From: Bacteroides fragilis NCTC 9343 | Lineage (GTDB): Bacteria; Bacteroidota; Bacteroidia; Bacteroidales; Bacteroidaceae | Length of the DNA: 64,000 nucleotides | Direction: 5' to 3' | Assembly: GCF_000025985.1 (NCBI RefSeq) | Contig: NC_003228.3 | Coordinates: 1,240,001-1,304,000 of the forward strand | The notes under the pieces: model-generated | What the model was told of the DNA's origin: nothing | Database searches by the model: none | Seen by the model: the letters and a program-made list of their open reading frames with translations, nothing else | Position numbers and translations under genes: made by a program | Part shown: piece after piece, positions 3,330 to 58,835 of the stretch | Layout: each line of letters starts with the position of its first letter | Numbering within the stretch: the first letter of the stretch is position 1

Positions 3330-4586
3330 ATGAGCATCATTATTTACCTGTTGATTACGATGGCATTTTCTGCTTTCTTTTCGGGAATGGAGATTGCTTT
3401 TGTTTCGGTAGACAAACTTCGTTTTGAAATGGACCGGAAAGGAGGGGTATCATCGCGTATCCTTTCGCTATTCTTCCGGAATCCCAATGATTTTATTTCG
3501 ACCATGCTGGTCGGGAATAACATCGCTCTGGTTATCTATGGTATATTGATGGCACAGATTATCGGCGACAATTTGCTGGCCGGATGGATCACCAATCATT
3601 TTGTAATGGTATTGGTACAGACCGTGATCTCCACACTGATCATCTTGGTGACAGGAGAGTTTCTGCCCAAAACGCTTTTTAAGATCAATCCCAATCTGGC
3701 CCTGAATGTCTGTGCAGTTCCTCTTTTCATCTGTTATGTTGTTCTCTATCCTATATCTAAATTTTCGTCGGGAGTCTCTTACCTCTTTCTTCGCCTGTTT
3801 GGGATGAAAGTGAACAAGGAAGCCTCTGCGAAAGCCTTTGGTAAGGTAGATCTGGATTATTTTGTCCAGTCGAGTATAGACAATGCCGAAAGTGAGGAAA
3901 CTCTGGACACGGAAGTGAAAATCTTTCAGAATGCACTCGACTTCTCGGCGGTCAAGATACGCGACTGCATCGTTCCACGGACAGAAGTGGTAGCTGTTGC
4001 GCTGGATACATCCCTTGAAGAACTTAAAGGCCGGTTTGTTGAGTCCGGTATATCAAAAATAATTGTCTACGATGGTAATATAGATAATGTGGTGGGATAC
4101 ATTCATTCGTCCGAAATGTTTCGTAGCCCGAAAGATTGGCGCAATCATGTGAAAGAAGTTCCCATTGTGCCTGAAACGATGGCGGCCCATAAACTGATGA
4201 AGCTGTTTATGCAACAGAAAAAGACCATTGCCGTGGTAGTGGATGAATTTGGAGGAACTTCGGGTATTGTCAGCCTTGAAGACCTTGTTGAAGAAATTTT
4301 CGGTGACATCGAAGACGAACACGACAACACTTCCTATATTTGTAAGCAGATCGGTGAGCATGAATACGTGCTTTCAGCCCGTTTGGAAATAGAAAAAGTA
4401 AACGAAACTTTTAATCTGGAGCTTCCCGAATCCGATGACTATCTAACGGTGGGAGGATTAATCTTGAATCAATACCAGAGCTTTCCGAAATTGCACGAAT
4501 TGGTCTCTGTCGGTAAATATCAGTTTAAGATAATTAAGGTTACAGCAACGAAAATCGAACTTGTCCGACTGAAAGTAATGGAATAA
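3330..4586 (+). CDS. CorC/HlyC-family CNNM-CBS membrane protein (GldE-like)
   Basis: 418 residues. The N-terminal CNNM domain (about 1-190) has four hydrophobic segments and the FSGMEIAF signature. A pair of CBS domains follows (about 205-330, with DCIVPRTEVVAV and VVDEFGGTSGIVSLEDLVEE), then the C-terminal CorC_HlyC domain (about 345-418). The family is linked to Mg2+/Co2+ efflux or tolerance. Bacteroidetes members include GldE, needed for gliding and stabilisation of GldD, but a non-gliding Bacteroides would use it for ion homeostasis. Two bases separate it from lptC, so the genes are likely co-transcribed. The old 'hemolysin' label is not supported. Confidence 0.88.
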   Translation: MSIIIYLLITMAFSAFFSGMEIAFVSVDKLRFEMDRKGGVSSRILSLFFRNPNDFISTMLVGNNIALVIYGILMAQIIGDNLLAGWITNHFVMVLVQTVISTLIILVTGEFLPKTLFKINPNLALNVCAVPLFICYVVLYPISKFSSGVSYLFLRLFGMKVNKEASAKAFGKVDLDYFVQSSIDNAESEETLDTEVKIFQNALDFSAVKIRDCIVPRTEVVAVALDTSLEELKGRFVESGISKIIVYDGNIDNVVGYIHSSEMFRSPKDWRNHVKEVPIVPETMAAHKLMKLFMQQKKTIAVVVDEFGGTSGIVSLEDLVEEIFGDIEDEHDNTSYICKQIGEHEYVLSARLEIEKVNETFNLELPESDDYLTVGGLILNQYQSFPKLHELVSVGKYQFKIIKVTATKIELVRLKVME

Positions 4587-49245: not shown

Positions 49246-49640
49246 GGGGTTGACTGGTTTTGACAGCGGGCAGAAATGGTGGGTAAGCATGCAGTGCGTC
49301 GGTGATTTGCACTTTAATCTCAGTTATCAAAATTTTATCTGGCGAAACTAATTACGCTCTTGCTGCTTAATCGAATCATAGTAGATTAGCTTAATCCAGG
49401 CACCAGGTGCCAGGACGAGACATCACTCGGAAGCTGTTGCTCCGAAGCATTCCGGTTCAGTGGTGCAGTTACATCGGGGATAGTCAGAAGTGGCCTTGCG
49501 CTTCTGATGAAACTTTAAAGGATAAGGCAGGAATTGATGGCTTTGGTTCTGCTCCTGCACGAAAAACTTAGGCAAAGATAAGCATGTAGAAAGCTTATGA
49601 TTTCCTCGTTTGGACGAGGGTTCGAATCCCTCCAGCTCCA
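49246..49640 (+). ncRNA. ssrA: Transfer-messenger RNA (tmRNA)
   Basis: Rescues stalled ribosomes with a tRNA-like acceptor and a short message. The 5' end GGGGTTG pairs with CAGCTCC at the 3' end in a 7-bp acceptor stem. The T-arm loop region GGGTTCGAATCCC precedes it. The tag frame near 49341-49369 reads GETNYALAA and then a TAA stop, preceded by the non-encoded Ala. The discriminator A (49640) is followed by CTT, so CCA is added after transcription. A terminator hairpin follows. Confidence 0.97.
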
Positions 49641-49649
49641 CTTTATGAC

Positions 49650-49690: not shown

Positions 49691-50137
49691 GGGTTAATAA
49701 GATCCCAATTGTCCGGGTTATAAAGTTCTTCTCTAACGTAAGTTGTTGAAATATATTGGATTAACTTCATTTTATCCCCAATTATTTGTCCGGGTAATTT
49801 ATTTTGTTTTTTAAAATAAACACTCTACATTTGGCTTCGGAGTAATTTGTCATAGAGAATCGACAAATGAAAAACAATCTGATTCCAAGTCTGGTTAAGG
49901 AAATTATTGTCTACCCATATTTGTTCCTAATTCATATTCTGGAAAATGCCCCGTTAATCTGTCTTTTTTTTATTAGAAACCATATTTGGAAAACAAATTG
50001 AATATTATCCCGTTCTAATGTAGATCAGATTGATTTTTCATGTAAGTCACCTCTCTCAATGTCTTGTTACTAATAAATAAACTATGTGAACATCTCATTG
50101 CTGTTATTTTGTTAATATCCACTACGATAACTGAGAG

Positions 50138-50287: not shown

Positions 50288-52972
50288 ATGAAATATATTA
50301 TATACTTCATGATGATGTTGTATGGTTCATTATGTCATGCCATCGTTTGCAAACACATTGTAGAAAGAAGTGAAACGAATACTCGTAAAGTGTATCAGAT
50401 CCAAAGGGATGCTCTGGGTTATATGTGGTTTATGAACCATGCCGGAATCAGTCGGTTTGATGGGACCAAGCTAAAACACTATAAACTGCCGGCCGAAGGG
50501 CGAACCATGGATTATTATATGGGCAATTGCCGGTTGCTTACAGATAATCGGAATGGGTTGTGGGTAGTCACCCGTAATGGATATTTATGGATGTACAATC
50601 CATCATTGGATAAATTCGAATGCAGGAATCATCTGGTTATTCCGAATGATGTTTCCCTTCATTTTCTCTGCGTAGATAACAGTAGTCATATCTGGTTTTC
50701 TGTCGGAAACCGGTTGATAGCCTATCAAATACTATCTAATACTTTTCATCGGGTGGATCATAGCCTGGCAACGATTTCCTGTATGGTAGAGGTGGCTCCG
50801 GGAGAGTATTTTGTAGGTTCGGATGAAGGGCTGTTCGGAATTACAATAAAGAATTATGCCGTCGACAGGCAAACCGGAGAATTGTCCGGTAAAAGATATA
50901 GCCGGATACATGAAATACTTTTTCATCCTTATACCCAAAGATTGGTTATGTTTGATTATTCGGAAGGATTAGGGGTATGGGATATGAAGTCGGAGCAATT
51001 GGTTGGTACTTGGAACCGATTGTTGAATAGTCGGGTCAGTGGTCTGAGGATATGGGATGACCGGACTGTTTTGGTAGCTACAGATGGTGAGGGAATATTT
51101 CGTATGGATATCGTTAATCCGGATATTACATCTTTTATACAAACTGATTTTGAGAATGATAATTCAATTCGTACCAACCGGATTGCTGACGTGTTTGTAG
51201 ATGATCAGAAACTTATCTGGGTGGCGGATTATCCGGAAGGCGTATCAATGATCGATGTGGAATCTCCTGATGATTATAAATGGTACAGGGCACGGTCCGG
51301 GGACAGTCATCCACTGACCAACAATCGGATAAATGCGGTTCTGCATGATTCGGATGGGGATGTCTGGTTTGCAACGGATCACGGTATCAGTTGTTTTCAT
51401 CCGTCGACAGGCTTATGGAACCGGATTGTTACGCCTCTTCCTTGTCAGATGTATACTGCATTGTGTGAAGTAAAGCCGGGAGAGATATGTGCCGGGAACT
51501 ATGTACACGGTTTGTTCTTCATCCGAAAGAAAAGTAATTATTCGGTTACACCGTATGTACGTATTTCAGGAGTAAACGCATTGTGTCGTAAGGATAAAGA
51601 CGGTTTTTGGATTGGAACGGATGAAGGGGTGTTTTTTTATTGTCCGGAAAACGATAGTATCGTGGAGGTAAAACGCTTGTCCGGTTTACACATTCATGCT
51701 TTGCATCAGTCCGATGATTGTCTTTATATTGGGACTGAAGGAAACGGATTAATGGTCTATCATCCGGAGCATGAGCAGATGGATACGGTTGCTGCTTTAG
51801 GAACCGGTAATGTATATGCTGTTTGGTCGGATGATAGCAGGCGGTTAATGGGAAGCAGTGATGGGTTTGCTTTCTCGCTCGATCTTGTACAACATTCATA
51901 TTACAGGTTTCTGAGTAAAGGAATTCGGATTACATCGGGTACTTTCTTAGGTAATGGAAGATACATTTTGGGCACCTATCAAGGCGCAATTGAGTATGAT
52001 AAACAAAAGGCTCGACCGCTGCGTAAAGCTTGTTTGGGATTTTACTTGGACGAACTTCGGGTTTTGGACAAAGAGGTGACCGTCGAAACGGAGAATTCTC
52101 CATTGAAGAAAGCTCTGAACTGTACAGCTACGTTACAGTTGGAGCACAATGAAAATACTTTTTCGTTTACGGCTACTGCCATTCGCTATACTGAAAAGCA
52201 GGATATAGCTTACAGTTGGAAACTCGATCATACGGATTGGAGTGCTCCGTCTGTAGATAATAGAATTCGTTTTTCGAACCTTCCTCCGGGTGAATATATC
52301 TTTTCTGTGCGGGCGTTATCCATTGATAACGGTCGGCCGTTTGCGCAAAGAAATATGCACATCATCATTCGTCAACCCCTTTGGAAGACAGGTGGAGCTT
52401 TCCTTTGTTACGGTCTTTTGGCACTTATGTTGGGCTCTCTGGCCGTACGTTCATGGTTCGTATGGCAAGACAGAAACCTTTCAAGAGAACAAGTACGGTT
52501 GTTTGCGAATACGACACGTAACCTTTGTCTACCACTTACACTGATAAAAGTTCCTTTGGAATATCTTTATGAAAAGTCATCTTCCGAACTTGTTAGTAAC
52601 GTATTGCAACAGATAAAGGGAGTGAACAATTTATTGGCTGAGCTGGAAAATATCAGTCGTGTTTCTGCTGCTCCGGGGCGTCTGTCGCTTGCCGACTATG
52701 AGTTATCCATATTCTTGAAAGAGACAGTAGCCCGAATTAGAGATTATATCAGCGAGAAGGACATTATGCTCCGTTGGACGGAGGAGCCTGCCTTTGCTAC
52801 CGTATGCCTCGATAAGGATAAGATGTCTGCCATTCTTAGAAACCTGTTAATGGCTTTTACAGACAGTATGGATCGAGGTGGCGAAATTCTTCTGAGTACT
52901 TCGTGTAACAATCAAAAGTGGGAGTTGAGGCTGGAATCTGAGGATAACGGGTTTCTTAAAAAAAAATTCTAA
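50288..52972 (+). CDS. Hybrid two-component regulator, N-terminal part (propeller, Y_Y_Y, degenerate kinase)
   Basis: 894 residues. A signal peptide (1-18) precedes two-component propeller repeats (about 30-590, e.g. DALGYMWFMNHAGISRFDGT and DSDGDVWFATDHGISCFHPS), a Y_Y_Y domain (about 625-690), one membrane helix (about 700-722) and a kinase-like part. The usual H-box His is replaced: F739 onwards reads FANTTRNLCLPLTLI, with R744 where His should be. The frame stops (TAA 52970) immediately after an A9 run at 52958-52966. One extra A, or a -1 shift, joins it to the gene at 53011 to give a 1,246-residue hybrid. Likely senses a polysaccharide breakdown product in related proteins, but no such locus lies beside it. 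Confidence 0.85.
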   Translation: MKYIIYFMMMLYGSLCHAIVCKHIVERSETNTRKVYQIQRDALGYMWFMNHAGISRFDGTKLKHYKLPAEGRTMDYYMGNCRLLTDNRNGLWVVTRNGYLWMYNPSLDKFECRNHLVIPNDVSLHFLCVDNSSHIWFSVGNRLIAYQILSNTFHRVDHSLATISCMVEVAPGEYFVGSDEGLFGITIKNYAVDRQTGELSGKRYSRIHEILFHPYTQRLVMFDYSEGLGVWDMKSEQLVGTWNRLLNSRVSGLRIWDDRTVLVATDGEGIFRMDIVNPDITSFIQTDFENDNSIRTNRIADVFVDDQKLIWVADYPEGVSMIDVESPDDYKWYRARSGDSHPLTNNRINAVLHDSDGDVWFATDHGISCFHPSTGLWNRIVTPLPCQMYTALCEVKPGEICAGNYVHGLFFIRKKSNYSVTPYVRISGVNALCRKDKDGFWIGTDEGVFFYCPENDSIVEVKRLSGLHIHALHQSDDCLYIGTEGNGLMVYHPEHEQMDTVAALGTGNVYAVWSDDSRRLMGSSDGFAFSLDLVQHSYYRFLSKGIRITSGTFLGNGRYILGTYQGAIEYDKQKARPLRKACLGFYLDELRVLDKEVTVETENSPLKKALNCTATLQLEHNENTFSFTATAIRYTEKQDIAYSWKLDHTDWSAPSVDNRIRFSNLPPGEYIFSVRALSIDNGRPFAQRNMHIIIRQPLWKTGGAFLCYGLLALMLGSLAVRSWFVWQDRNLSREQVRLFANTTRNLCLPLTLIKVPLEYLYEKSSSELVSNVLQQIKGVNNLLAELENISRVSAAPGRLSLADYELSIFLKETVARIRDYISEKDIMLRWTEEPAFATVCLDKDKMSAILRNLLMAFTDSMDRGGEILLSTSCNNQKWELRLESEDNGFLKKKF
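52958..52966 (+). other. A9 homopolymer at the frameshift point
   Basis: Nine A residues containing the slippery heptamer AAAAAAA, exactly where the regulator frame breaks. A -1 ribosomal shift, or one additional A in DNA or RNA, restores the downstream frame without any intervening stop. Confidence 0.7.
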
Positions 52973-53010
52973 ATTATAAAGGGTTCGTTTCGGGAGGTTC
53001 TTCCGAGACA

Positions 53011-54027
53011 ATGAGTTGGCTATTTATACGTAAATTAATCTGTTTGCATAAAGGTAAAATCAAATTTGCTTATAAAGAAGAACAAAAACTGGTGCTTATT
53101 TTAATTTTTCCTATTGTCATCCGGCAATCGGAAAGAGTTTCTGAATTCTCCGGGATATTATCCGTACCGGAGCTCTCCACAGGGAATAGTGAGTTGTTGT
53201 CGGTTACCGGAATGCTGCCGACAGTGAAAACTTCTGAGCAGAAACGTCCGGATAAGAAAAAAGAGAAACATTCTCTGGTATTGGTTGAAAGGAATAAGGA
53301 TTTGTGTAATTATCTTGTGCAAATCCTGATGAAGGAGTATAAGATTGTGTCTGTTTGTGATGCGGAGGCGGCCTTTGAGACTGTGTGTGAACAATGTCCG
53401 GATGCAGTACTGGCTTCTTCTGTTCTTACCCGTATTTCGGGTGAGGAACTTGCCGTTCGGATTAAATCGGATGACAGAGTAGCACATATTCCGGTAATAT
53501 TGTTAGTGAAACCGGGAGAGGATGACCGGTACATTCAACGGAATGCCGATCTTTATGTGTGGATGCCTTTTGCCATATCATCTTTAAAGACTGAGATTGC
53601 AGCTTTGATTGCTAACCGGGAAATGATCCGTAAGAGGTATATTCGTTTGGCCTTGGGGGGTGAGGCCTCGGACCCTATCGATAAAGAGGTAGAGTCATCA
53701 GAAGGTGATCAGGAGTTTATTCGTCAGGTGAGAAGTCTGATTGAAGAGAGGATGACCGATTCCGGATTTAAGATTGGTGAACTGAGCGGCTGCATGAATA
53801 TGAGTCGTTCGAGTTTTTATAATAAGATTAAGGAGATAACCGGACATGCTCCTGCGGACTATGTTCGTAATGTGCGGCTCAACAGAGCATTGGTTTTGTT
53901 AATGAGCAGAAAGTATACGGTGGCTGAGGTTGCGGATATGACGGGTTTCAGTGATCCTAAATACTTCGGGATCGTGTTTAAGAAATATTATGGGGGCTCA
54001 CCGACGAAGTATATAAACAATTTATAG
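53011..54027 (+). CDS. Hybrid two-component regulator, C-terminal part (kinase tail, receiver-like, AraC)
   Basis: 338 residues from the first ATG in frame, which is probably not a native start. Residues 3-35 are the tail of a HATPase domain (FIRKLICLHKGKIKFAYKEE, then LILIFPI). A receiver-like domain (about 85-200) follows; its phospho-acceptor position is S136 in PDAVLASSVL, and ER replaces the acidic pair in VLVERNKDL. The AraC-type helix-turn-helix (about 235-338, FKIGELSGCMNMSRSSFYNK and VAEVADMTGFSDPKYFG) looks intact. A strong terminator follows. Alone, it might act as a free AraC regulator if translated. Confidence 0.82.
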   Translation: MSWLFIRKLICLHKGKIKFAYKEEQKLVLILIFPIVIRQSERVSEFSGILSVPELSTGNSELLSVTGMLPTVKTSEQKRPDKKKEKHSLVLVERNKDLCNYLVQILMKEYKIVSVCDAEAAFETVCEQCPDAVLASSVLTRISGEELAVRIKSDDRVAHIPVILLVKPGEDDRYIQRNADLYVWMPFAISSLKTEIAALIANREMIRKRYIRLALGGEASDPIDKEVESSEGDQEFIRQVRSLIEERMTDSGFKIGELSGCMNMSRSSFYNKIKEITGHAPADYVRNVRLNRALVLLMSRKYTVAEVADMTGFSDPKYFGIVFKKYYGGSPTKYINNL

Positions 54028-54160: not shown

Positions 54161-55255
54161 ATGAATGAACGTAAAATTATACATATCGATATGGATGCCT
54201 TTTATGCTTCTGTGGAGCAAAGGGATCATCCTGAATTGCGTGGTAAACCGCTTGCCGTGGGGCATGCCGAGGAGCGGGGAGTAGTAGCGGCAGCAAGTTA
54301 TGAAGCTCGTCGTTATGGAGTTCGTTCGGCTATGTCGTCACAAAAGGCGAAACGTCTGTGTCCGCAATTGATTTTTGTTCCCGGACGGATGGAAGTGTAT
54401 AAATCCGTTTCCCGTCAGGTACACGAAATATTTCATGAGTATACCGATCTGATTGAACCTCTGTCATTGGATGAAGCGTTTCTTGATGTGACGGAGAATA
54501 AGCAGGGGATCTTGCTGGCTGTGGATATAGCTAAAGCTATCAAGCAACGTATCCGTGAAGAACTGAGCCTGGTGGCATCGGCAGGCGTGTCGTATAATAA
54601 ATTTCTGGCTAAAATAGCTTCGGACTTTCGTAAACCCGACGGACTTTGTACTATTCATCCTGATCAGGCAATCGATTTCATTGCCCGTTTGCCTATTGAG
54701 TCATTTTGGGGAGTAGGGCCGGTGACTGCCCGGAAGATGCATTTACTGGGGATACACAATGGACTTCAGTTACGGGAGTGTTCGTCTGAAATGCTGGTAC
54801 GTCAGTTTGGTAAAGTGGGACTGCTTTATTATGATTTTGCACGTGGAGTCGATCTTCGACCGGTAGAAGCAGTGAGAATACGTAAATCAATCGGATGTGA
54901 GCATACATTGGAGAAAGACATCCATGTAAGATCGTCTGTGATTATAGAGCTTTATCACGTAGCTACGGAGCTTGTAGAGCGATTGCAGCAGAAAGAGTTC
55001 CGGGGAAATACACTAACTCTGAAGATCAAGTTTCATGATTTTAGCCAGATAACACGAAGCATGACACAGGCACAGGAACTTACGAATCTTGAGAGAATCT
55101 TGCCCCTTGCCAAACAATTGCTGAAAGAGGTGGAGTATGAGCAGCATCCCATTCGCTTGATCGGGCTTTCGGTATCGAATCCGAGAGAAGAAGCGGATGA
55201 ACATCGGGGAGTATGGGAACAACTGAGTTTTGAATTTAGTGATTGGGGAAAATAG
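54161..55255 (+). CDS. dinB: DNA polymerase IV (DinB)
   Basis: Y-family translesion polymerase, 364 residues. Catalytic carboxylates lie in HIDMDAFYASVEQRDHP (first motif) and PLSLDEAFLDVT (second motif); ASDFRKPDGLCTI and VGPVTARKMHLLGI (helix-hairpin-helix) are also present. The C-terminal little-finger region ends with GLSVSNPREEADEHRG and a possible clamp-binding QLSFEF near 355. It has its own -7 box. Error-prone replication of damaged DNA in the cytoplasm. Confidence 0.96.
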   Translation: MNERKIIHIDMDAFYASVEQRDHPELRGKPLAVGHAEERGVVAAASYEARRYGVRSAMSSQKAKRLCPQLIFVPGRMEVYKSVSRQVHEIFHEYTDLIEPLSLDEAFLDVTENKQGILLAVDIAKAIKQRIREELSLVASAGVSYNKFLAKIASDFRKPDGLCTIHPDQAIDFIARLPIESFWGVGPVTARKMHLLGIHNGLQLRECSSEMLVRQFGKVGLLYYDFARGVDLRPVEAVRIRKSIGCEHTLEKDIHVRSSVIIELYHVATELVERLQQKEFRGNTLTLKIKFHDFSQITRSMTQAQELTNLERILPLAKQLLKEVEYEQHPIRLIGLSVSNPREEADEHRGVWEQLSFEFSDWGK

Positions 55256-55917: not shown

Positions 55918-58596
55918 CTATAATCCATGGATTACTTTCATTAACTGTTCGCCCAATCCGATGGTATAACCTTGTGACACGAAGACTACCCGGTTGAATG
56001 TATCACCGATAATAAACATGGGCAGGATGGTGCTGTTTGGCAACTTCATCGATTCGGCAATTTGTTTCTGGATCGCTCCATCTACGTCGATACCATAGGT
56101 AATGGTTGAAGGCAATCCGGGGAATTCTGACGGGCGGAACTTTTTGTACTGTTCTTCACTAGGGAAGAGCAACACCATTTTGCGTCCCCATTTTTCAAAT
56201 TCACCGCTTAAAGCTGCAATATCCCGAAGGGCATGGTTAGTGGGTTCTTGTCCGGCTCCCAGCACTGCTACAACGTAGTATCCCCGGCCACAAGTCTGAA
56301 GAATACTTTGCGGTTCGGAGGTTCCTATAGGCAGATAAGTCGATTCGGAATTAAAATTACCAATTACTTGTACCTGGTCTTTGCTTTCGCGCATGACCAG
56401 ATCGACAGTTGTTGTCTTTCCCTCTTCAATGGTGAAGAAAGTCACATTAGCCAATACAGCTCCGCTTGCCATGCGAGTACCGGTTACCATCATATAGTAT
56501 CCTGTGTCCAGGCGTGCACCATTCTTCAGCAAGTTCGACCAGGTGGCTCCTCCACCCATATCTACGTCACCTTCGTCGTAGTTGAGGAGTTGGAAGGTTC
56601 CATTGCGGAACTTTGAGAGGGTGAAGTGTGAATAGTATTTTGGATCACTCAACGAAGGGATCGGCCGGTAGCGGGCTACGAGCGTTCCGGTTGGTGCCTG
56701 CGTTTGCTGTGCGGCTTCAAAATCGACATCATAGACCTTGCCGTTCTTGAGGTTGTTGTCATTGAAAGTCCGATATTGAATCTTGCCGGTCACTTCATCT
56801 ATCCAGGCAGGAATCCCCAGGCTACGGGCCATGGATACAAAGAAAATGTTACGGGATTTCTCGTCTGCTACCCGGGCTTTCCATACACCCATTGGTGACA
56901 TTGGTATACGTTGTGAGTTTAATTCGTTATTGATTGTGATCTCTTTTTTACACCATTCTACCAAAGCTTGTGGATTTTTGCGGAAGGCTTCTGCTTCACT
57001 TGCCGGAATCTCTTTCCGGAAGAATGCTTTGTAAGGAGTGATCATTTCATTGGCTACACGCGGGTTCAGTACGTTGCTACAGAAATCTTCAGAAGCGGGC
57101 AGGCCGGAGTTATTCAGATGGTCGTTCAATACTTCCGGGCTTACGTCTCTCAGGTCTTTGGCCGAGACTACTTTCAGCAGGCTGATAGCCTGACCGGCCT
57201 TATCGGCTTTTACAGCATCAGAAAGGAAATCGGTTAAAGTCTGGTGGTTACCTCTGGAAGCTATCAGTAAGCGTACTGTTTCGGTTTCATCCAGCTTATT
57301 CTCTTTGGCAAAAGTCCGAGCTTGCTCTTCGGTAATGAAAGTGGCTACGTATGCGTTGCGGATAGAATCTTCCTGTGCCATGCGCCGATCATTTTCAGTA
57401 CGTTGTTCCGGAGTCACTTCGGGCAGGTTGGCGCCTTCGGCAGGAGGAACGATATCCAGTGGAAGCGAATAGGTTTCACTGGCGTTTTTGTCCAGTGTGA
57501 TCTTCAGTTCATTGTCTTTGCCGAATGATAGTTTAGAATAACCGAACCGTCCGTCTTTGGAGGCCCATACCAACATATCACCCTTGCCGGCAGTCAATGA
57601 TGCATGCCCGCTCCGGTCTGTATGTTTGGTGGCCACCGTATAAAATTCAGCGTAGTTATAGACCTTGAACTCTACGGTAGCATCGGCTACCGGCTGACCT
57701 TCGGCATCTGTCACGAGTACGGAACCTTTGGCAGTCGGAGCATAATTGTCAATCACGTTGATCTCTGTATAATTCGGAGTTTCGTACATGATTTCTTCTT
57801 GTCCGGTATAGCGTCCGAATACCTTTGTATGCATCAGCATACCACGACTGGCGGGAGCATTAAACCAACCCAGGTTCAAAACCGGTTCCGGTTCACAGGC
57901 ACCAAAGAAATACCATTTGCCATCTACCCAGGCTTCTACCCATGCATGGTTGTCATCGGTATGTGCCCAACGCGGAGTATATACCTGTCGTGCCGGAATA
58001 CCTACCGAGCGAAGAGCTGCTACGGTGAAGGTGGATTCTTCACCACAGCGACCATAAGCGGTTTTTACGGAAGCGAGTGGAGCACTCGTACGGGCATCAC
58101 TTGGGGTGTAGATTACCTTTTCGTGGCACCAGTGGTTTACCTCGAGTACAGCGTCGTGTAATGACAGATTCTTCACACGGTCTTTCAGTTCATTGTAAAA
58201 CACCCGGCGTGAGTCATCCAGGTTTTCATTGTTTACCCGAATGGGGAGCACAAAATGACGGAATACGTCATCGGGGATTTCTTTTCCCCAAGGCATTTCC
58301 CGACGTGCCTGATCGGAGAGTCTGACATTTTCCAGATAGTAGTCGCCTGTATAATCCGTTACGTCACCTGTAGGCATGTAGGCATAGAGGAACATTAAAG
58401 CCTCTTGTTCGGGAATGGTGAGCTTTTCATTAAACACTGCAAACAACTCTCCATTGGGAAGTTGCTGCTTCTTCATTTCAAAATCTTGCGTCACTTGGTT
58501 TCGGTAAGCCACATCTTTCAGGAAATGGGACTCACTGCATGAAAAGAACGCAACCGACAACATCGGAATGATTAGAAAGCGGGTTAGGGTTTTCAT
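55918..58596 (-). CDS. Large transglutaminase-domain lipoprotein
   Basis: 892 residues from the ATG at 58596 (the ATG at 58707 adds 37 poor residues). Lipobox LSVAFFSC. The transglutaminase core (about 190-265) has YGRCGEESTFTVAALRSVGI (catalytic Cys) and DDNHAWVEAWVDGKWYFFGA (catalytic His). The third acidic residue is not clear. A beta-sandwich domain (about 300-380) and a thioredoxin-like end (VVAVLGAGQEPTNHALRDIA, PSTITYGIDVDGAIQKQIAE) follow. The mix suggests an extracytoplasmic protein-processing or peptide-binding role; the substrate is not predictable. It converges with the small lipoprotein gene. Confidence 0.85.
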   Translation of the reverse strand: MKTLTRFLIIPMLSVAFFSCSESHFLKDVAYRNQVTQDFEMKKQQLPNGELFAVFNEKLTIPEQEALMFLYAYMPTGDVTDYTGDYYLENVRLSDQARREMPWGKEIPDDVFRHFVLPIRVNNENLDDSRRVFYNELKDRVKNLSLHDAVLEVNHWCHEKVIYTPSDARTSAPLASVKTAYGRCGEESTFTVAALRSVGIPARQVYTPRWAHTDDNHAWVEAWVDGKWYFFGACEPEPVLNLGWFNAPASRGMLMHTKVFGRYTGQEEIMYETPNYTEINVIDNYAPTAKGSVLVTDAEGQPVADATVEFKVYNYAEFYTVATKHTDRSGHASLTAGKGDMLVWASKDGRFGYSKLSFGKDNELKITLDKNASETYSLPLDIVPPAEGANLPEVTPEQRTENDRRMAQEDSIRNAYVATFITEEQARTFAKENKLDETETVRLLIASRGNHQTLTDFLSDAVKADKAGQAISLLKVVSAKDLRDVSPEVLNDHLNNSGLPASEDFCSNVLNPRVANEMITPYKAFFRKEIPASEAEAFRKNPQALVEWCKKEITINNELNSQRIPMSPMGVWKARVADEKSRNIFFVSMARSLGIPAWIDEVTGKIQYRTFNDNNLKNGKVYDVDFEAAQQTQAPTGTLVARYRPIPSLSDPKYYSHFTLSKFRNGTFQLLNYDEGDVDMGGGATWSNLLKNGARLDTGYYMMVTGTRMASGAVLANVTFFTIEEGKTTTVDLVMRESKDQVQVIGNFNSESTYLPIGTSEPQSILQTCGRGYYVVAVLGAGQEPTNHALRDIAALSGEFEKWGRKMVLLFPSEEQYKKFRPSEFPGLPSTITYGIDVDGAIQKQIAESMKLPNSTILPMFIIGDTFNRVVFVSQGYTIGLGEQLMKVIHGL

Positions 58597-58618
58597 ACAA
58601 TTTGTTGTTAAGTAAGGC

Positions 58619-58662
58619 CTCACCCCCGTTCCTCTCTTAAGGAGAGGGGGGAGTGAATGCTT
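58619..58662. repeat. Short REP-like palindromic motif
   Basis: CCTCTCTTAAGGAGAGG flanked by C and G runs between the transglutaminase gene and its upstream neighbour. Short GC-rich hairpins like this recur in Bacteroides genomes; it was seen only once in this window, so the call is tentative. Confidence 0.35.
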
Positions 58663-58835
58663 TTGGTTCATATATTTAGTTTTGATTTCTTTCTCTTTTT
58701 GTTTCATCTTTCCGGAATTACTGTTTTCTACTTTAATCTTTCGGTATCTTTATGGTCATTTATGAAAATTCTGGTTTACATTCTTCGGAGTCCGGCTCTT
58801 TTCCATTTTCCGGGTGAAGGAAAGAGAACGGAACT

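What the first reader, a model, noticed from the sequence alone, without database searches (positions are those of the whole stretch)
50288..54027. Hybrid two-component regulator split by one base at an A9 run
The sensor half stops just after nine A residues. Adding one A, or a -1 frameshift on the AAAAAAA slippery stretch, continues with no stop into the frame of the next gene. The joined protein has propeller, Y_Y_Y, kinase tail, receiver-like and AraC parts, and about 1,246 residues. Both halves are otherwise open. This could be phase variation by slipped-strand mispairing, transcriptional slippage or programmed ribosomal frameshift that makes both a sensor-only and a full product, or a simple sequencing or assembly error.
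Basis: partly seen in the sequence, partly recalled or inferred. Interest (0 to 1): 0.72.

Follow-up and report, generated by a model that had tools for sequence, protein, structure and literature searches.

The report
Conserved poly-A frameshift splits sensor-regulator
A gut Bacteroides gene for a one-piece sensor-and-switch protein is broken by one base at a run of nine A's, and the same break is kept in related species whose sequences otherwise differ widely, so it looks like a built-in way to make a short and a long protein from one gene rather than an error.

Summary
The first ORF (50288-52972) stops at the second codon after A9 (52958-52966). The other half (to 54027) lies in the -1 frame, which opens only at 52960, so the join must lie in the A run. 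It is not an error or simple decay. Orthologues in three other species (93, 77, 40% identical) also stop soon after an A9 run. The downstream half is under purifying selection in the -1 frame (dN/dS 0.19 at dS 0.86). A 44% relative is naturally fused, with the same junction spacing. Best reading: a conserved recoding site, most likely transcriptional slippage at A9, giving mainly a truncated membrane sensor and some full-length sensor-AraC regulator. Ribosomal -1 frameshifting at A_AAA_AAA is not excluded. DNA phase variation is poorly supported. The clade has lost the kinase His and receiver Asp, so it is no longer an ordinary phosphorelay. Against: 335 of 1267 members of fragilis-like downstream-half clusters lie in clusters whose representative carries a further lesion. 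Neither product was observed.

The parts
50288..52972 (+). Upstream ORF, 894 aa: signal peptide, propeller repeats (Reg_prop), Y_Y_Y, transmembrane helix, degenerate HisKA and the first part of a degenerate HATPase domain. Ends KKKF-stop.
   Evidence: signal peptide and helix read by eye
52958..52966 (+). A9 run, the only place where the two frames can be joined; contains the in-phase heptamer A_AAA_AAA (52960-52966).
   Evidence: A9 also in three other species
52970..52972 (+). Zero-frame stop TAA that ends the short product.
52960..54027 (+). Downstream frame (-1), 355 codons: rest of the HATPase domain, degenerate receiver domain, AraC-type HTH.
52967..53010 (+). Stretch between the run and the first ATG of the downstream frame; no ATG/GTG/TTG in the -1 frame, yet 5 of 7 differences to the 77% relative are at third positions of that frame.
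   Evidence: counted over 17 codons, the ATG and one more codon included
53011..53013 (+). ATG that starts the 338-aa ORF; not present at that place in the distant relatives G048 and G038.
52987..53009 (+). Predicted 10-bp hairpin, 20 nt past the run; a like hairpin in G017 and G022, none in G048 or G038; a possible stimulator or chance.
49246..49643 (+). tmRNA gene upstream (neighbour, not part of the system).
54161..55255 (+). dinB (DNA polymerase IV), neighbour; a dinB-like ORF follows the orthologue in all four other species, so these are taken as orthologous loci.

Best explanation
This is a conserved recoding site in a regulator derived from the hybrid two-component family. RNA polymerase most likely slips on the A9 tract. 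Messages with nine A's, or with one A fewer, give a membrane sensor that stops inside the HATPase domain. Messages with one extra A, or two fewer, give the full 1,246-residue protein with its receiver-like and AraC DNA-binding parts. Shown here: the frame break, its conservation, purifying selection on both halves, and the loss of phosphorelay residues in the clade. Inferred: slippage as the mechanism, the presence of both products in the cell, and that the short form pairs with the long form and tempers it. Because the His and Asp are gone, signalling is inferred to be conformational rather than by phosphotransfer.
For: (1) 5 of 158 genomes of the genus have an orthologue at E <= 1e-150; 4 of the 5 have A9 and an open frame that ends soon after it (898, 899, 899, 915 codons), the fifth has A10. 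(2) dN/dS of the downstream half in the -1 frame is 0.208 (vs G017) and 0.189 (vs G022), of the upstream half 0.26 and 0.134; the wrong frames of the downstream half give 1.03-1.80 for these two pairs. (3) The stretch before the first ATG is constrained in the -1 frame although no ATG, GTG or TTG precedes it. (4) That ATG is not conserved: G048's first start-like codon is a TTG 18 codons past the run. (5) A naturally fused homologue, P0003 (1244 aa), has the same spacing at the junction, and its sub-threshold HATPase_c match spans the junction. (6) A8- or A11-type messages also end 3 codons past KKK (27 in G048). (7) Precedents: T. thermophilus dnaX (A9) and Shigella mxiE (passages of PMC1088944), the latter an AraC-family activator (abstract start of PMC3299695 in the listing), and C. 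rodentium tssM1 with A11, where both forms are needed (abstract and passages of PMC4256274).
Against: No RNA or protein data. The in-phase heptamer also fits ribosomal -1 frameshifting, and the fragilis group has a possible downstream structure. 335 of 1267 members of fragilis-like downstream-half clusters lie in clusters whose representative is truncated or shifted elsewhere (P0017, P0018, P0019), and three single sequences are altered too (P0011, P0014, P0016), so the long form is probably dispensable in some strains. AAA at all nine lysine codons of the run in three deep lineages has a chance of about 0.018 by own codon usage, only moderate. G038 has A10, and a further one-base loss upstream puts its start out of frame. 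In the fragilis group identical blocks longer than the one at the run exist elsewhere in the gene (39 and 31 nt against 28).
Confidence: 0.65

Rival explanations
1. Programmed -1 ribosomal frameshifting on A_AAA_AAA, perhaps helped by downstream RNA structure, makes the long product from an unaltered message.
For: The heptamer is in the right phase at 52960-52966. The fragilis group has a hairpin at 52987-53009 (whole-stretch z from -1.4 to -2.4), and in the minimum-energy folds of the window and of G022 an outer stem begins 8 nt after the run. Synonymous change is lower just downstream (pS 0.33 in codons 17-60 against 0.54 further on, G000-G022).
Against: The run is nine A's rather than seven in the four A9 species. 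The hairpin itself starts 20 nt away; the outer stem is not in the G017 fold, and neither is seen in G048 or G038. The window at the hairpin ranks seventh of 105 in the gene by z. No upstream stimulator was seen by eye.
Confidence: 0.2
2. Gene fission: the two halves are now separate proteins, the second started at its own ATG or TTG, and the A9 is a fixed old frameshift.
For: The two ORFs are 38 nt apart and each has a plausible start in the window. Downstream halves are predicted as separate proteins in the collection.
Against: A second protein would begin inside the HATPase domain. The start codon is not conserved. The stretch before the ATG is constrained in the -1 frame. The naturally fused P0003 has the same spacing as the joined reading.
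Confidence: 0.07
3. DNA-level phase variation by slipped-strand mispairing between A9 (off) and A10 (on).
For: A9 tracts can mutate. G038 has A10, while P0006, 88% identical to it over its main match, ends as an A9 gene would.
Against: Among the 9 proteins listed at E <= 1e-60 none closer than 44% is full length, beside clusters of 2624 and 1038 members with short representatives. Four separate genomes read A9. How members of a cluster vary in length is not shown by the tool.
Confidence: 0.05
4. Ordinary pseudogene on its way out, or sequencing error.
For: Secondary lesions of the second half in some fragilis-like clusters, catalytic residues lost, and a second lesion in G038.
Against: dN/dS well under 1 in both halves at dS near 1, the same break in four species, and catalytic loss shared with the fused P0003.
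Confidence: 0.03

Closest known systems
Shigella mxiE (AraC-family activator made by transcriptional slippage at a run of U/T)
   Same: Two overlapping ORFs; one added base in the message joins them and gives the longer product (passages of PMC1088944 and PMC5009743; AraC family from the abstract start of PMC3299695, listing).
   Different: Here the break lies inside a membrane-bound sensor, 353 codons before the end, and the short form keeps the whole sensor. That mxiE has no such sensor part is recalled.
Citrobacter rodentium tssM1 (A11 run before an early stop)
   Same: Poly-A run just upstream of an early stop in a membrane protein; short and full-length forms (abstract and passages of PMC4256274).
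   Different: Different protein family. Slippage there was shown by mass measurement on cDNA products; here it is inferred.
Thermus thermophilus dnaX (A9)
   Same: Nine A's in the sense strand give messages of varied length and two products (passages of PMC1088944).
   Different: There the unslipped message gives the long product; here it gives the short one.
Bacteroides hybrid two-component systems (HTCS)
   Same: Propeller, Y_Y_Y, transmembrane, kinase-like, receiver-like, AraC order.
   Different: Kinase His, ATP-binding motifs and receiver Asp are lost in the clade, and the reading frame is split.

Membership tests
Genes with programmed frame transition (recoding) | Two overlapping frames with a slippery motif at the only joining point | tested here: met
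Genes with programmed frame transition (recoding) | Motif and frame break conserved across species | tested here: met
   A9 with a frame break in 4 of 5 orthologue-bearing genomes; the fifth has A10 and no break at the run
Genes with programmed frame transition (recoding) | Downstream frame under purifying selection as protein | tested here: met
   dN/dS 0.19-0.21 against G022 and G017. Lesions in some fragilis-like clusters:
Genes with programmed frame transition (recoding) | Both products made in the cell | not testable with these tools
   no RNA or protein data
Transcriptional slippage genes | Homopolymer of nine or more A/T | tested here: met
   A9
Transcriptional slippage genes | Messages with non-templated run length | not testable with these tools
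   needs cDNA sequencing
Programmed -1 ribosomal frameshifting | In-phase X_XXY_YYZ heptamer | tested here: met
   A_AAA_AAA at 52960-52966
Programmed -1 ribosomal frameshifting | Conserved stimulatory RNA structure a few nt downstream | tested here: inconclusive
   hairpin 20 nt away in the fragilis group only; an outer stem 8 nt away in two of its three folds
Canonical HTCS phosphorelay | Domain order of HTCS | tested here: met
Canonical HTCS phosphorelay | Phospho-accepting His in HisKA | tested here: not met
   Arg or Lys in all 6 clade rows aligned, His in all 4 outgroup rows
Canonical HTCS phosphorelay | Phospho-accepting Asp in the receiver | tested here: not met
   replaced in all 5 clade rows aligned, kept in all 4 outgroup rows
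Phase-variable genes (slipped-strand mispairing) | Run length varies among strains of one species | tested here: inconclusive
   one genome per species held; cluster lengths argue against

The most novel reading that the evidence does not exclude
A conserved A9 tract sets a fixed or condition-dependent ratio of a sensor-only protein to a membrane-tethered sensor-AraC protein in a clade that has dropped phosphotransfer. The short form would act as a partner or sink for the long form, replacing phosphorylation as the way to tune output. To my knowledge, and within the searches named, this would be the first hybrid two-component regulator controlled by recoding.
Probability: 0.3. Interest if true: 0.78.

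Novelty: new variant of a known kind. Interest (0 to 1): 0.62.

Why it matters
The best-known recoded bacterial genes are those of insertion sequences, prfB and dnaX (introduction passage of PMC3711429). A conserved case in a regulator of a common gut Bacteroides would show that sensor and output halves can be uncoupled before or during translation, and that standard gene prediction misses the long protein. It also marks a clade of HTCS-like proteins without phosphorelay residues whose way of signalling is open and testable. I found no report of a recoded HTCS in these searches: 'transcriptional slippage' + Bacteroides (2 papers), 'transcriptional slippage' + histidine kinase (6 papers), 'hybrid two-component' + Bacteroides fragilis + frameshift (0 papers), and a wider HTCS/pseudokinase search (7 papers, 6 listed). 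Listings only, apart from passages of PMC6692573. The GeneTack survey (PMC3711429) proposes 146 candidate clusters whose supplements I could not see, so this family may be among them.

Tried and rejected
Sequencing error: rejected because four separate genomes share A9. Genome-wide habit: of 83 A9+/T9+ runs examined only this one splits one domain under my criteria; two look-alikes were the start of a glf-like gene and two tandem paralogues. Conserved RNA structure: a hairpin in the fragilis group only, seventh of 105 windows of the gene by z. Order of branching of the three deep lineages, to ask whether the fused P0003 is ancestral or a reversion: unresolved (support 52/27; AU p 0.45 and 0.29 for the two other groupings). 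Wider searches for orthologues: 2 of 399 family genomes at E 1e-90 with the window's half; with P0003 at E 1e-140, 5 of 397 relatives and 1 of 393 order genomes; all matches were genomes already found. Named species: only G017 could be named, as Bacteroides fragilis S82, from a contig of the same length. Whether P0028, a 335-aa relative of the fused P0003, is split or only predicted short was not settled. The Bacteroides promoter motif (recalled) at 49803 is no more frequent in the window than chance (3 found, 2.6 expected). Plasmid search: no match. No structure was predicted.

Papers: passages only of PMC3711429, PMC1088944, PMC5009743, PMC4256274 and PMC6692573; all others search listings only.
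Full report
What is there. The window holds an 894-aa ORF at 50288-52972 and a 338-aa ORF at 53011-54027. The first has its stop at the second codon after A9 at 52958-52966. The frame of the second, -1 relative to the first, is closed by a stop at 52957-52959 and opens at 52960, so both frames are open together for only about ten bases and any join must lie in the run. The first half has Reg_prop and Y_Y_Y matches, the second a sub-threshold receiver match and a clear AraC HTH. The HATPase domain is split: its C-terminal part lies in the second frame, and the sub-threshold HATPase_c match of the naturally fused relative P0003 (residues 845-946) spans the same point.

Is it an error? The comparison says no. 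Of 158 genomes of the genus, 5 have an orthologue at E <= 1e-150: the window's own genome G000, G017 (93%), G022 (77%), G048 (40%) and G038 (39%). The first four have A9 at the junction and an open frame that ends soon after it (898, 899, 899 and 915 codons); G038 has A10 and no break there. A dinB-like ORF follows the gene in all four other species, so I take the loci as orthologous. In the protein collection (9 proteins listed at E <= 1e-60) the upstream half is an 894-aa representative with 2624 members and an 895-aa one (77%) with 1038; three further ones at 39-40% are 905-909 aa and end KKK plus a tail of 9 to 14 residues that differs between lineages. The one fused member of the clade in that list is P0003 (44%, 1244 aa, 11 members), whose junction reads KKH where the others read KKK; a fragment, P0027, carries the same fused junction. 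The tool does not show how much length varies inside a cluster.

Is it decay? Not as a whole. By Nei-Gojobori counts, dN/dS is 0.26 (upstream) and 0.208 (downstream, -1 frame) for G000-G017, and 0.134 and 0.189 for G000-G022, where dS is 1.02 and 0.86; the two wrong frames of the downstream half give 1.03 to 1.80 for these pairs. G000-G048 is saturated, or nearly so, at synonymous sites. The stretch between the run and the first ATG has no ATG, GTG or TTG in frame, yet 5 of its 7 differences between G000 and G022 are at third positions of the -1 frame (the count covers 17 codons, the ATG and the next codon included; Fisher p about 0.008 on rounded site numbers). The ATG itself is not conserved: in G048 the first start-like codon is a TTG 18 codons past the run, and G038 has an ATG only at the run's edge. 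From the run's three codons to the conserved SW/GW there are 16 codons in G000, G017, G022, G048, G038 and P0003. These facts fit translation through the junction better than a separate second protein.

Against this, the downstream half is damaged in some fragilis-like sequences: clusters P0017 (102 members, altered start and linker), P0018 (207, truncated) and P0019 (26, truncated) make up 335 of the 1267 members in the 13 clusters I count as fragilis-like (91% identity or more over the match; P0020, P0021 and P0041 were not read), while P0010 (911) is intact; the single sequences P0011, P0014 and P0016 are altered too. Only representatives were read. The long form is therefore probably dispensable in some strains. 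G038, besides A10, has lost one base upstream, which puts its start out of frame; this may be decay or an assembly fault.

Mechanism. Three levels could join the frames. Transcriptional slippage is favoured: the run is nine A's in all four A9 species, nine being the length at which selection against such runs is evident in a large share of bacterial genomes (abstract passage of PMC1088944), and the run stays while its surroundings differ between the deep lineages. Lysine codons in these genes are AAA in 37 of 65 (G000), 50 of 86 (G048) and 26 of 33 (G038, downstream half only), so AAA at all nine run codons of the three deep lineages has a chance of about 0.018. Ribosomal -1 frameshifting is possible on A_AAA_AAA. 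The fragilis group has a hairpin at 52987-53009, the lowest-energy folds of the window and of G022 add an outer stem 8 nt after the run (not in G017), and synonymous change is lower just downstream; but the structure is not seen in G048 and G038, and the window ranks seventh of 105 in the gene by z. A 28-nt block identical between G000 and G022 covers the run, but longer identical blocks exist elsewhere in the gene. DNA phase variation is little favoured for lack of any close full-length cluster. Messages with A8 or A11 end 3 codons past KKK in the fragilis group and 27 in G048, so a message that does not reach the -1 frame gives a short product.

What it does. In the rows aligned, the clade including P0003 has Arg or Lys in place of the kinase His (6 of 6 rows), has lost the N-box Asn and the canonical glycine boxes, and has lost the receiver Asp and Lys (5 of 5 rows), while the four outgroup HTCS rows, one a paralogue of the same genome, keep them (the motif names are recalled). 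I infer a membrane-tethered AraC regulator that signals by shape change, with the sensor-only form as a more abundant partner. Which genes it controls is not known; its neighbours are tmRNA and dinB, which are not obvious targets.

Rarity. 83 A9+/T9+ runs of the genome were examined with about 1.5 kb on each side. Three showed an ORF of at least 150 codons ending near the run with another frame open across it; two of these are adjacent genes. Within these criteria this is the only such case.

Known or new. The mechanism class is known: dnaX of Thermus (A9), mxiE of Shigella and tssM1 of Citrobacter (A11) (passages). A GeneTack survey of frame transitions has no mention of two-component, histidine kinase or AraC in its main text (term search only); its supplements were not seen. 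I found no description of a recoded HTCS in the searches named under Why it matters. I rate it a new variant of a known kind.

Noticed in passing
L037 (G000:C1:1637459): A glf-like gene starts with ATG followed at once by A9, overlapping the stop of a flippase-like gene (names from the look of the translations, not from a search); slippage there would affect the first codons.
   Followed up: partly
L051 (G000:C1:2521876): Two tandem paralogous membrane protein genes meet at a run of nine A's close to the stop of the first.
   Followed up: partly
L011, about 3907-4037: The G038 orthologue has a one-base loss far upstream of the junction in addition to A10 at the junction.
   Followed up: partly
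P0017, P0018, P0019: Secondary lesions of the receiver-AraC half in fragilis-like sequences, in clusters of 102, 207 and 26 members.
   Followed up: partly
P0016: A single sequence in which a deletion removes the junction and joins the two halves without the HATPase end.
   Followed up: no
window 49803-49833: Match to the Bacteroides promoter consensus (recalled) between tmRNA and the regulator; no more frequent in the window than chance.
   Followed up: partly
window 55918-58707 (-): Large protein with a transglutaminase-like domain beyond dinB; similar ORFs lie near the orthologues in G017, G022 and G038.
   Followed up: no
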